IMG/VR virus record: IMGVR_UViG_3300023118_000018
Span: 1 to 35,884 of that record
Strand: one strand, 5' to 3'
Length of the DNA stretch: 35,884 nucleotides
DNA from: a virus
How positions within the stretch are numbered: position 1 is the first letter of the stretch; each line of letters begins with the position of its first letter. This document shows, piece after piece, positions 28,654 through 30,842 of this stretch. The position numbers and the translations under genes were made by a program. Under the pieces are notes generated by a model. The model saw only the letters and a list, made by a program, of their open reading frames with translations, did not search any database and was not told the origin of the DNA.

Positions 28654-28682
28654 TTGACACGTAAGCTTTGCGTGTGTAATGT
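28654..28682 (+). promoter_or_regulatory. Strong sigma70-type promoter TTGACA-N17-TAATGT
   Basis: A consensus -35 TTGACA (28654-28659), a 17-nt spacer and -10 TAATGT (28677-28682). It lies 129 nt before the basic DNA-binding protein gene, leaving a leader of about 120 nt. The best promoter in the window. Confidence 0.82.
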
Positions 28683-28742
28683 GTTTCTTGTTCGCAAAGA
28701 AAACGACAAATATTGATTCTCTCCCGAATCTAGAACTTCACG

Positions 28743-28810: not shown

Positions 28811-29365
28811 ATGCCTGCTGCACGTCGCACCAAGAAAGCAAAGCCCGCCGAGGAAATCCAGGAAGTCGAAGAGGTCGACACCGATCTCGAACTCGACGAG
28901 GACGAGGCTGAAGAGGAAGCTCCGGCCCCCAAGGCGAAGAAGAAGTCCACCAAGGCAAAGGCCGAAAAGGTCGAGAAGCCCGCCAAGGCCGAAATCGCAT
29001 TTGGTACCCAGCAGCTCGCTGACCACGTCAACGAAGAAGCCGGCACCTCCCACACCCCGTACACCCTGCGCATCCTGCTCCGCAAGCTGACCGCCGACGG
29101 TGTCCTGGAACGCGCTGAGTCCGAAGGCCGCGCTCGTTACTCCTTCACCGGCCCCGAGGATCCCCAGGTTCAGGCCATTGTCGAAGCCGTCAAGTCCGGC
29201 GCTGACAAGAAGGCTGAAGCCGAACGCCTCCAGGGTCTCAAGGACAAGCGTGCTGCCAAGAAGGCTGCTGAAAAGCCGGCCAAGGGCAAGCGCACCAAAA
29301 AGGCTGATGTCGAGCCGGAGCCCGAAGAAGAGGATGACTTCGACGCTGAAATCGAAGACATCTAA
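28811..29365 (+). CDS. Basic/acidic tailed winged-helix DNA-binding protein
   Basis: 184 residues; AGGAG before the ATG. The N-terminal 60 residues are low-complexity: a Lys-rich start, an acidic run and a Lys/Ala-rich linker. Residues 62-118 form a compact helical domain (FGTQQLADHVNEEAGTSHTP; TLRILLRKLTADGVL; RARYSFTGPEDPQV) that looks like a winged helix. The rest is a Lys/Ala-rich helix and an acidic tail (EPEPEEEDDFDAEIEDI). The layout recalls histone-like or Lsr2-like nucleoid proteins. The strong promoter and leader suggest high early expression. The core matches the protein at 30843 (TP..LR..R, then RYSFT.PE). Confidence 0.82.
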   Translation: MPAARRTKKAKPAEEIQEVEEVDTDLELDEDEAEEEAPAPKAKKKSTKAKAEKVEKPAKAEIAFGTQQLADHVNEEAGTSHTPYTLRILLRKLTADGVLERAESEGRARYSFTGPEDPQVQAIVEAVKSGADKKAEAERLQGLKDKRAAKKAAEKPAKGKRTKKADVEPEPEEEDDFDAEIEDI

Positions 29366-29382: not shown

Positions 29383-29464
29383 AGGTGTGTCGCGTTCTGA
29401 CGGGCGCCAGGTAAGTAGCGGATAAAGGCCCTATAGCGCATCGCCTCCGTCACGTGGCACACCT
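29383..29464 (+). ncRNA. Long imperfect hairpin RNA (82 nt)
   Basis: AGGTGTGTCGCG (29383-29394) pairs with CGTGGCACACCT (29453-29464), 12 bp with two G-U pairs. After a 3-nt bulge TGACGG (29398-29403) pairs with CCGTCA (29447-29452), then GCG with CGC across a 2-nt bulge. About 21 pairs close a 35-nt apical region. The length is tRNA-like, but no T-loop sequence is present and the stem is too long for an acceptor. Probably a stable structured RNA or a processing hairpin. Confidence 0.55.
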
Positions 29465-29470
29465 ACAAAG

Positions 29471-29589
29471 TCCCACACCTTGCTCGAGCTATCACTCCTT
29501 TCATTTTGTGACTGCGGCTGTCGGGGCAATCGTGCAAGGGGTGGGATATCTAACTGAATGCCCACCGTCTCCTCCCCGAGGCGAGTGGG
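29471..29589 (+). ncRNA. Alternative hairpins with attenuator-like layout
   Basis: Segment 1, TCCCACACCTTGC (29471-29483), pairs with segment 2, GCAAGGGGTGGGA (29534-29546): 13 bp with one mismatch. Segment 2 also contains GGTGGG (29540-29545), which can pair instead with segment 3, CCCACC (29561-29566). Segment 3 can alternatively pair with segment 4, GTGGG (29585-29589). So 1:2 plus 3:4 competes with 2:3, the logic of an attenuator or riboswitch. No ligand domain is recognised. Confidence 0.45.
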
Positions 29590-29594
29590 ACCAT

Positions 29595-29658
29595 GATCAC
29601 GATTAGCACACGAGCAGAGGTCAGATCAACCTCGTGGGTTTGAGGCCCATTCGTGATC
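29595..29658 (+). ncRNA. Shortened tRNA-like fold
   Basis: The acceptor-like stem is perfect: GATCACGA (29595-29602) with TCGTGATC (29651-29658). A 5-bp anticodon-like stem GAGGT/ACCTC (29617-29621, 29629-29633) holds the 7-nt loop CAGATCA. A T-arm GTGGG/CCCAT (29634-29638, 29646-29650) holds loop TTTGAGG. But the D region is only 14 nt with two possible pairs, there is no variable loop, and position 33 is A, not U. It resembles a reduced tRNA (GAT would be Ile). A competing 6-bp hairpin CACGAG/CTCGTG exists. Confidence 0.4.
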
Positions 29659-29663
29659 CTCTG

Positions 29664-29735
29664 AGGAACGTAGCTCAATTGGAAGAAGCATACGGGTTCA
29701 ACCGTCCGATGTGGGTTCGAGTCCCATCGTTCCTC
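29664..29735 (+). tRNA. tRNA with 6-nt anticodon loop (amino acid uncertain)
   Basis: Acceptor stem AGGAACG/CGTTCCT is perfect (29664-29670, 29728-29734) with discriminator C. TA follows, then a D arm GCT/AGC with a GG-containing loop. The T arm is GTGGG-TTCGAGT-CCCAT. The anticodon stem is ACGG/CCGT with loop GTTCAA, six bases instead of seven. Counting U33 as the first T gives anticodon TCA (reads UGA); counting the second T gives CAA. Leu is unlikely because there is no long variable arm. Length 72 nt, no encoded CCA. Either an unusual tRNA, a degenerate one or a decoy. Confidence 0.7.
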
Positions 29736-29763
29736 CGAAGATGTAAGTACGGGTTTTGACGAA

Positions 29764-29872
29764 TGGCCCTGGGTAGGGGTAGGCCCCTTAAACAGACAGA
29801 ATGCCTGGCCACAGAATCAACCGGCAGTACTCCTTCTGGAAGGTGCTGTGTCCCGATTTTGGCGTGATCGGG
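29764..29872 (+). other. Three compact hairpins between the tRNA genes
   Basis: AGGGG-TAGG-CCCCT (29775-29788), enclosed by TGGCC/GGCCA (29764-29768, 29807-29811); CAGTAC..CTT-CTGG-AAG..GTGCTG, bulged, about 29825-29849; and CCCGAT/ATCGGG (29852-29857, 29867-29872). The last ends 5 nt before the next tRNA-like gene. They could be processing signals or independent small RNAs. Confidence 0.45.
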
Positions 29873-29877
29873 TAGGG

Positions 29878-29954
29878 CGTAAGTCCTAGACCTGGAGGCT
29901 GGGGCGTTTGGCTCCAGACCGAAGGGTAGTGGTTCGAATCCACCCACTTTACGA
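29878..29954 (+). tRNA. tRNA-Trp (CCA) with imperfect acceptor stem
   Basis: The anticodon arm is clear: TTTGG-CTCCAGA-CCGAA (29907-29923), 5 bp with one U-G, U33 present, anticodon CCA at 29914-29916. T arm GTGG-TTCGAAT-CCAC (29929-29943). The acceptor pairs CGTAAGT (29878-29884) with ACTTTACG (29946-29953) only if one T is bulged. The D stem is weak (GACC/GGGC, one mismatch), with a 4-nt linker before it. No CCA is encoded. Functional tRNA-Trp is plausible but processing or charging may be impaired. Confidence 0.6.
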
Positions 29955-30056
29955 TGCATCAGATATGCATCAGGTAAGAGAGTGACCTCTCTTTCCATCG
30001 CAAAAGCTGGAACGTCTTCCGAATTCCCCATGAGTTCAAGATATGCCTAGCGATGG
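29955..30056 (+). other. Direct repeat and hairpins after the tRNA cluster
   Basis: ATGCATCAG occurs twice within 20 nt (29954-29973). AAGAGAG-TGAC-CTCTCTT (29976-29993) is a perfect 7-bp tetraloop hairpin. CCATCGC (29995-30001) pairs with GCGATGG (30050-30056), enclosing GGAA/TTCC and CAT/ATG mini-stems, again a tRNA-sized closed domain (62 nt). No coding signal is seen. Confidence 0.4.
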
Positions 30057-30075
30057 GCTCTTTGCTGGACAGGGC

Positions 30076-30138
30076 GTTAAGGGCTTAACACACCCAAGGT
30101 TGGTCGTGTATATGATGTATACGGTCGGTGACCAACCT
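30076..30138. promoter_or_regulatory. Operator-like palindromes
   Basis: GTTAAG-GG-CTTAAC (30076-30089), then a perfect 9-bp inverted repeat AGGTTGGTC (30097-30105) and GACCAACCT (30130-30138). The second loop contains the first copy of the GTCGTGTATAT...GATGTAT repeat. Confidence 0.5.
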
Positions 30139-30202
30139 GCGCCCTTGTCTGGGAGCTTCCCGATGTTGTCATTCGGTCTTTTGTCGTGTATATTCGATGT
30201 AT
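30103..30202 (+). repeat. Two direct repeats GTCGTGTATAT-(N0/2)-GATGTAT
   Basis: Copy 1 at 30103-30120 and copy 2 at 30183-30202 share GTCGTGTATAT and GATGTAT, with 0 or 2 bases between. The spacing is 80 nt, a whole number of helical turns within error. Candidate binding sites or paired promoters. Confidence 0.55.
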
Positions 30203-30280
30203 CGCGTCATTGACGCGTCATCGACGTAAGTTTTGATAATTCCATACTTTCCTGTGATGTTTCATCACATCCGTCACAGG
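30203..30280. promoter_or_regulatory. Two further palindromic sites
   Basis: CGCGTCA-T-TGACGCG (30203-30217) is a perfect 15-bp palindrome. TGTGATG-TTT-CATCACA (30253-30269) is a perfect 7-bp inverted repeat nested within CCTGTGA (30251-30257) and TCACAGG (30274-30280). Both are candidate operators upstream of the early gene at 30464. Confidence 0.5.
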
Positions 30281-30324
30281 AAAACGTGCCGGGTTTTCTT
30301 TGTCGTTTTCCCGCACGCACATAG

Positions 30325-30354
30325 CCCCCGTTGAGCTCGGCTCCGGGGGTTTTT
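30325..30354 (+). terminator. Strong intrinsic terminator
   Basis: CCCCCG (30325-30330) and CGGGGG (30344-30349), with GAGC/GCTC pairing inside the loop, followed by TTTTT (30350-30354). It ends the RNA cluster transcript. Confidence 0.88.
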
Positions 30355-30380: not shown

Positions 30381-30463
30381 ATGAACCAGCTAGAATGCTC
30401 TCCGTCGGGTTCGGTGGATGATATTGTTTATTCATCAATTCAAACGACTAAAAGGATTAACAA

Positions 30464-30775: not shown

Positions 30776-30830
30776 ATTACGTCTTTGTGATTTACTTTCA
30801 GAAAACGACAAACCAAACTTAAAACGACAA
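30776..30830 (+). promoter_or_regulatory. Conserved leader ATTACGT-N22-ACGACAAACCAAA, copy 2
   Basis: ATTACGT (30776-30782) and ACGACAAACCAAA (30805-30817), 38 nt before the ATG. The spacing between elements is identical to copy 1. A third partial ACGACAA follows at 30824-30830. Confidence 0.6.
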
Positions 30831-30842
30831 GGTCTCAGCCAC

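What the first reader, a model, noticed from the sequence alone, without database searches (positions are those of the whole stretch)
29383..30056. Tightly packed array of structured RNA elements
Over about 670 nt, closed stems follow one another with short spacers: an 82-nt hairpin, a 76-nt hairpin with alternatives, a reduced tRNA-like fold, a tRNA, three hairpins, a tRNA-Trp-like fold, a tetraloop hairpin and a last 62-nt closed domain. The region is non-coding, between an early gene and a strong terminator. It may be a polycistronic RNA precursor whose products are not ordinary tRNAs, for example decoys for host tRNA-cutting defences.
Basis: partly seen in the sequence, partly recalled or inferred. 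Interest (0 to 1): 0.7.

Follow-up and report, generated by a model that had tools for sequence, protein, structure and literature searches.

The report
Phage cluster of covarying structured RNAs
An uncultured actinobacterial virus carries a tightly packed, non-coding row of about a dozen small folded RNAs (one odd tRNA, tRNA look-alikes and several folds unlike any catalogued RNA), and a related virus keeps many of the same folds while changing their sequence, so they are probably working RNA parts of still unknown use.

Summary
Window 29383-30152 is a non-coding, + strand array of closed RNA domains between the gene 28811-29365 and an intrinsic terminator (30325-30354). Single-sequence folding energy supports it only weakly (whole region z -1.6). 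Comparative evidence is strong: one related IMG/VR contig (L002/L006) has an array in the same place; seven modules align, six of them clearly beat column-shuffled alignments (z -3.6 to -10), and named helices show 16 compensatory and 9 one-sided changes among 81 pairs, none broken. Stems change while loops stay, notably in the tRNA-like module 29595-29658. Other modules are lineage-specific, so the array turns over like a tRNA cluster. Only one module passes as tRNA, with a 6-nt anticodon loop; no other module reaches an Rfam gathering score. Streptomyces phages Zuko and KimJongPhill have a same-style but unrelated array (real tRNAs plus closed domains) downstream of a distant homologue of the flanking gene. 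Best reading: a phage tRNA-type polycistron whose products are mostly non-decoding stable RNAs, perhaps decoys or inhibitors of host RNA-acting proteins; that function is untested. Novelty: new variant of the known 'phage tRNA cluster plus extra stable RNAs' kind.

The parts
28654..28682 (+). promoter-like TTGACA-17-TAATGT upstream of the flanking gene; possible start of the gene-plus-array transcript (inferred)
   Evidence: sequence; region conserved in the relative; the -10 match is poor and the promoter scan did not list it
28811..29365 (+). flanking gene, 184 aa, phrog_16498, function unknown; ends 18 bases before the array
   Evidence: homologues in many actinophages
29383..29464 (+). 82-nt closed domain with a 13-bp closing helix; lineage-specific
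   Evidence: z -3.3; no counterpart in the relative
29471..29546 (+). module M3: 12-bp closing stem with branched interior; conserved inner sequence GCUAUCACUC...GUGACUGCGGCUGUCGGGGC
   Evidence: alignment z -4.85; covariance model finds only window and relative
   Evidence: no variation, so no covariation test
29595..29658 (+). module M6: tRNA-like cloverleaf with 8-bp acceptor-like stem, 2-bp D-like arm, 5-bp/7-nt anticodon-like arm (loop CAGAUCA), no variable loop, T-like arm (loop UUUGAGG)
   Evidence: z -4.5 with two compensatory pairs and invariant loops; model's next hits are tRNAs at weak scores
29664..29736 (+). module M7: tRNA with a 6-nt anticodon loop (GUUCAA), amino acid not assignable
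   Evidence: ARAGORN, Rfam tRNA 41 bits
29737..29871 (+). three hairpins; the first (29762-29815) is no more stable than shuffles
   Evidence: not in the relative
29872..29953 (+). module M7b: degenerate tRNA-like unit with a possible CCA (Trp) anticodon arm (29907-29923) and a T arm (29929-29943), poor acceptor/D half, competing hairpin
   Evidence: Rfam tRNA-Sec 20.7 bits, below its cut-off of 47; z -2.3; not in the relative
29953..29971 (+). module M8: hairpin, GAUGCAU/AUGCAUC to GAUGGC/GCCAUC in the relative
   Evidence: z -10.1, two compensatory pairs
29973..29996 (+). module M9: tetraloop hairpin after the shared sequence AUCAGGUAAG
29994..30057 (+). module M10: closed domain with conserved CCCAUGAGUUC interior
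   Evidence: z -9.3, three compensatory pairs in the closing stem
   Evidence: z -6.3; 8 compensatory pairs, 5 of 7 in the outer stem
30325..30354 (+). intrinsic terminator (CCCCCG...CGGGGG, TTTTT) that ends the region
   Evidence: sequence; conserved with pair changes, z -11 window at 30284

Best explanation
It is a phage tRNA-type gene cluster that has become a cassette of small structured RNAs. Shown: non-coding, + strand, at least six modules under selection for RNA secondary structure, some tRNA-like, module content turning over between relatives. Inferred: it is transcribed as the 3' part of the 28811-29365 message, ends at the terminator at 30325-30354, is cut between closing stems by host tRNA-processing and other nucleases, and releases stable RNAs. 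Most likely mechanism: because the tRNA-like units lack features needed for decoding (6-nt anticodon loop, A in place of U33, no variable loop, reduced D arm) while loops and T-like arms are kept, the RNAs bind host proteins that recognise tRNA or structured RNA and titrate or inhibit them, plausibly RNA-acting defence nucleases, rather than feeding translation.
For: Array in the same place in a related phage. Covariation: six modules z -3.6 to -10, control windows mean z -0.43; 16 compensatory and no broken pairs of 81. tRNA relation: one Rfam tRNA, the M6 model's next hits are tRNAs, adjacent T arms 15/17 identical. Not known RNAs: no other Rfam gathering hit. Not coding. Same layout in Zuko/KimJongPhill. 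Precedents for phage RNA mimics of defence components: PMC10651486, PMC3475682.
Against: No transcript or processing data. Only one homologous array. Host and any target protein unknown. The unit most like an anticodon-loop decoy is not conserved. Published phage tRNAs that counter tRNA-cutting defences do so by replacing cut tRNAs, not as decoys (PMC10264068, PMC11555353).
Confidence: 0.4

Rival explanations
1. Stable structured RNAs from a tRNA-type cluster, but with translation-related roles (unusual decoding or frameshifting tRNA, ribosome or RNase modulators) rather than counter-defence.
For: A recognisable tRNA is present; in Zuko and KimJongPhill the tRNAs of the cluster are canonical.
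Against: The window's tRNA has a 6-nt anticodon loop; the relative's array has no tRNA that ARAGORN or Rfam recognises; most modules have no tRNA features.
Confidence: 0.25
2. Cis-acting RNA: a structured 3' untranslated region or transcription attenuation/antitermination element that controls or protects the phage message and acts only as part of the transcript.
For: Lies directly after a stop codon and before a terminator; operator-like repeats AAACGACAAA cluster around it.
Against: Ten or more separate closed domains with tRNA-like units, and module gain and loss between relatives, are more than such elements need.
Confidence: 0.18
3. A decaying tRNA cluster: relics of captured tRNA genes and spacer hairpins without function.
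For: Several units look like degenerate tRNAs; some stretches are no more structured than shuffles (29762-29815); lineage-specific content.
Against: Compensatory changes and invariant loops in six modules show purifying selection on structure; relics would break pairs. It may hold for individual units such as 29872-29953.
Confidence: 0.09
4. A DNA-level element (replication origin or packaging site rich in inverted repeats).
For: Location at the late/early gene junction; several inverted repeats.
Against: Helices use G-U pairs; recognisable tRNA T arms; the M3 model scores 104 bits on the + and 22 on the - strand.
Confidence: 0.05

Closest known systems
Phage T4 tRNA gene cluster with the extra stable RNAs C and D (own knowledge; no paper on it was found in the held library)
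   Same: one cluster holding tRNAs and further small structured RNAs of unknown function, read as a polycistronic precursor
   Different: here most units are not tRNAs, the only tRNA is odd, and the RNAs are unrelated to any Rfam family; processing not shown
GOLLD RNA in phage-derived tRNA clusters, including mycobacteria (PMC6582537)
   Same: unusual RNA of unknown function inside or beside phage tRNA clusters, with a (pseudo) tRNA
   Different: GOLLD is one large RNA of more than 400 nt; no Rfam GOLLD match here; here many small domains
Arrays of Streptomyces phages Zuko and KimJongPhill (unannotated, seen here)
   Same: closed RNA domains interleaved with tRNAs, downstream of a distant homologue of the same flanking gene; several domains pass the shuffle test
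   Different: modules unrelated in sequence; their tRNAs are canonical; protein genes lie between the flanking gene and the array
Phage tRNAs that evade tRNA-targeting defences (PMC10264068, PMC11555353)
   Same: phage tRNA cluster in the setting of host tRNA-cutting nucleases
   Different: those are functional tRNAs that replace cut ones; here units mostly cannot decode
RNA anti-CRISPRs (Racrs, PMC10651486) and pseudo-ToxI RNA of phage PhiTE (PMC3475682)
   Same: small phage RNAs; proposed mode (mimicry that titrates a host defence protein)
   Different: those copy a known defence RNA; here no mimicked defence RNA was identified

Membership tests
canonical tRNA (RF00005) | score over the family cut-off | tested here: met
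   29664-29735 only, 41 bits; the other tRNA-like units do not reach it
canonical tRNA (RF00005) | 7-nt anticodon loop with U33 and a readable anticodon | tested here: not met
   29664-29736 has a 6-nt loop and ARAGORN gives no amino acid; M6 has A at the U33 place
canonical tRNA (RF00005) | CCA added and amino acid charged | not testable with these tools
   needs biochemistry
phage tRNA cluster with extra stable RNAs (T4-like) | several structured RNAs closely spaced on one strand with at least one tRNA | tested here: met
phage tRNA cluster with extra stable RNAs (T4-like) | processed from one precursor into stable RNAs | not testable with these tools
   no transcript data
GOLLD, ROOL or other Rfam RNA | match to the family model at its gathering score | tested here: not met
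   only tRNA found in window and in L006, L007, L008; nothing above cut-off in the relative's array
anticodon-nuclease decoy | is bound or cut by a named host nuclease in place of a host tRNA | not testable with these tools
   host and nuclease unknown
anticodon-nuclease decoy | conserved anticodon-like loop without decoding features | tested here: inconclusive
   M6 loop CAGAUCA is invariant between two phages, but the CCA loop of 29872-29953 is not in the relative
RNA anti-CRISPR (Racr) | copy of a CRISPR repeat of the host | tested here: inconclusive
   no Rfam CRISPR repeat family at its cut-off; host repeats unknown

The most novel reading that the evidence does not exclude
Actinophages carry cassettes of lineage-specific, rapidly exchanged small structured RNAs, built on tRNA-cluster processing, that work as a panel of RNA inhibitors or decoys against host RNA-acting defences: an RNA counterpart of clustered protein anti-defence genes.
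Probability: 0.22. Interest if true: 0.85.

Novelty: new variant of a known kind. Interest (0 to 1): 0.52.

Why it matters
At least six RNA folds supported by comparison sit in one phage region, and a cultured genus (Zuko, KimJongPhill) has a similar array that its annotation leaves blank or covers with tiny ORFs, so the question can be taken to the bench. If the RNAs act against host defences, phage tRNA clusters would be a general place to look for RNA-based counter-defence, and the old question of what the extra stable RNAs in such clusters do would become testable.

Tried and rejected
More homologues: exact and gapped DNA patterns for M3 and M6 in IMG/VR gave only the one relative plus coincidental coding matches (L004, L005, L073-L078). 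Protein searches with the flanking gene, the downstream gene, the helicase and a conserved 128-aa neighbour gave no further array of the same type and no prophages. L003, L081 and L082 carry flanking-gene homologues without tRNAs or a visible array nearby; L079 ends just after the gene. Cultured relatives Muddy, Triscuit, Shrew, SteamedHams and NoShow have protein genes there and no annotated RNA. Coding reading: no conserved ORF. M3 loop as an anti-Shine-Dalgarno mimic: the window's AUCACUCCUUUC resembles a 16S 3' end (recalled), but the relative changes just these bases, so dropped. Recurrent short words (UCAAC, CCUCC, GUAAG) led to no target. Covariance models of M3 and M11 found nothing beyond the two phages; M6 found tRNAs weakly. 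A first hand alignment of M11 was mis-registered and replaced by helix-by-helix counting.

Full report
What the window is. The window is a whole IMG/VR virus record of 35,884 bases, from what looks like an actinobacterial siphovirus: terminase, portal, tape measure and tail genes on the left, a SNF2-type helicase, thymidylate kinase and dUTPase on the right, with portal and helicase matches to Rhodococcus, Gordonia, Mycobacterium and Streptomyces phages. The array lies between the two halves, directly after the gene 28811-29365.

The observation. Two were missed, a hairpin at 29561-29589 and a three-way domain at 30065-30152, so the array runs from 29383 to 30152. Folding energy alone does not make the case: z -1.6 for the whole region, and 80-nt sliding windows are only mildly below the rest of the window. 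Individual modules reach z -1.8 to -3.5, except 29762-29815, but their boundaries were chosen after seeing the folds.

Comparative evidence. One related contig, IMGVR_UViG_3300007790_000264 (L002, L006, L009 and L072 are parts of it), is syntenic over the right part of the window (helicase 86%, flanking gene 77% identical) and has an array in the same place. Seven modules align. Against alignments with shuffled columns they score z -4.85 (29471-29546), -3.6 (29561-29589), -4.5 (29595-29658), -10.1 (29953-29971), -3.9 (29972-29998, only three consensus pairs), -9.3 (29994-30057) and -6.3 (30065-30152). The same test on 296 windows outside the array gives mean z -0.43 and only 3.7% below -3.5, several of these at the array's own terminator region and in other intergenic stretches. 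Counting helix by helix, 81 pairs contain 56 unchanged, 9 one-sided and 16 two-sided compensatory changes, none broken. The helices were named by eye, so the absence of breaks is biased; the shuffle test is the fairer measure. In the outer helix of 30065-30152, 5 of 7 pairs change on both sides.

Turnover. The domain 29383-29464 and everything between 29737 and 29953 have no counterpart in the relative, which has its own closed domains instead (L002 6551-6617, 6623-6718, 6802-6897). The array gains and loses units, as tRNA clusters do.

How tRNA-like is it? One unit, 29664-29736, passes Rfam's tRNA model (41 bits), but its anticodon loop has six bases and ARAGORN cannot assign it. The module 29595-29658 has an 8-bp acceptor-like stem, a two-pair D-like arm, a five-pair anticodon-like arm with a seven-base loop (CAGAUCA, with A where U33 belongs), no variable loop and a T-like arm. 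Its stems covary while these two loops are invariant. A model built from it finds, after itself, the neighbouring tRNA and tRNAs of Streptomyces-type phages, at weak scores (18.1 and 14.6 bits, E 0.035 and 0.37), which fits a tRNA origin of its T half without proving it. The unit 29872-29953 can form a CCA (Trp) anticodon arm and a T arm but has no proper acceptor and D half and a competing hairpin; it is not in the relative. So the cluster is partly tRNA-derived, and most of its products do not look like decoding tRNAs.

Is it RNA, and which strand? The helices use G-U pairs, the model for 29471-29546 scores 104 bits on the plus and 22 on the minus strand, neighbouring genes are on the plus strand, and no conserved ORF covers the array. 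A TTGACA-17-TAATGT sequence upstream of the flanking gene (28654-28682; region conserved) and the terminator at 30325-30354 would give one transcript of gene plus array; this is inference, and the -10 element is poor.

Relatives further out. Streptomyces phages Zuko and KimJongPhill, and a near-identical metagenomic contig (L080), carry a distant homologue of the flanking gene and, about 1.2 kb downstream, canonical tRNAs (Ile-TAT, Glu-CTC, Lys-CTT) separated by long closed domains that are not annotated as RNA genes. Five of seven of these domains pass the shuffle test (z -2.8 to -6.5), two do not. Their sequences share little with the window's modules beyond tRNA-arm words. Other cultured actinophages with the flanking gene that I checked have only protein genes there. 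So the layout recurs, but the parts are lineage-specific, and linkage to the flanking gene is loose.

Mechanism. Best supported: a tRNA-type polycistron releasing small stable RNAs that are mostly non-decoding. What they do is inferred. Turnover, tRNA resemblance without decoding features, and conserved loops fit RNAs that bind and titrate host proteins, and phage RNAs that disarm defences by mimicry are known (Racrs, PMC10651486; pseudo-ToxI, PMC3475682). Phage tRNAs that withstand tRNA-cutting defences are also known, but these replace the cut tRNA (PMC10264068, PMC11555353). GOLLD RNA in phage-derived tRNA clusters of mycobacteria is the nearest actinobacterial precedent for an odd RNA in such a cluster (PMC6582537). 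None of the papers found describes an array like this one; the library is partial, so that absence is weak evidence.

Limits. Two arrays only, no transcript data, host unknown. The structural claim is strong; the functional claim is not.

Noticed in passing
window 28701-28710, 30180-30189(-), 30299-30308(-), 30442-30451, 30803-30812, 30822-30831: AAACGACAAA-like sites: 6 of the window's 8 matches (2.4 expected by chance in all) lie within 2.1 kb around the array, beside likely promoters, and similar sites stand in the relative; possible operator of a phage regulator.
   Followed up: partly
window 30244-30354: About 110 bases after the array are strongly conserved in the relative: a hairpin CCTGTGATG...CATCACAGG, a second hairpin with the AAACGACAAA-like site in its loop, then the terminator; looks like a regulatory leader or terminator complex.
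   Followed up: partly
L007 2600-3820, L008 2540-3980, L080 7650-9080: Unannotated arrays of long closed RNA domains between tRNAs in Streptomyces phages Zuko and KimJongPhill and a metagenomic relative; some are overlain by tiny doubtful ORFs.
   Followed up: partly
window 29581-29654; L002 6993-7065: The 3' strand of hairpin M5 (GCGAGUGGG) can pair with the T-arm and acceptor 3' strand of M6 in both phages, an alternative fold or switch.
   Followed up: no
L002 6577-6588 and 6666-6677: The relative's two extra 5' domains share GG(C/A)UUCAACGAC, which resembles the GGGUUCAACC anticodon-loop region of the window's tRNA.
   Followed up: no
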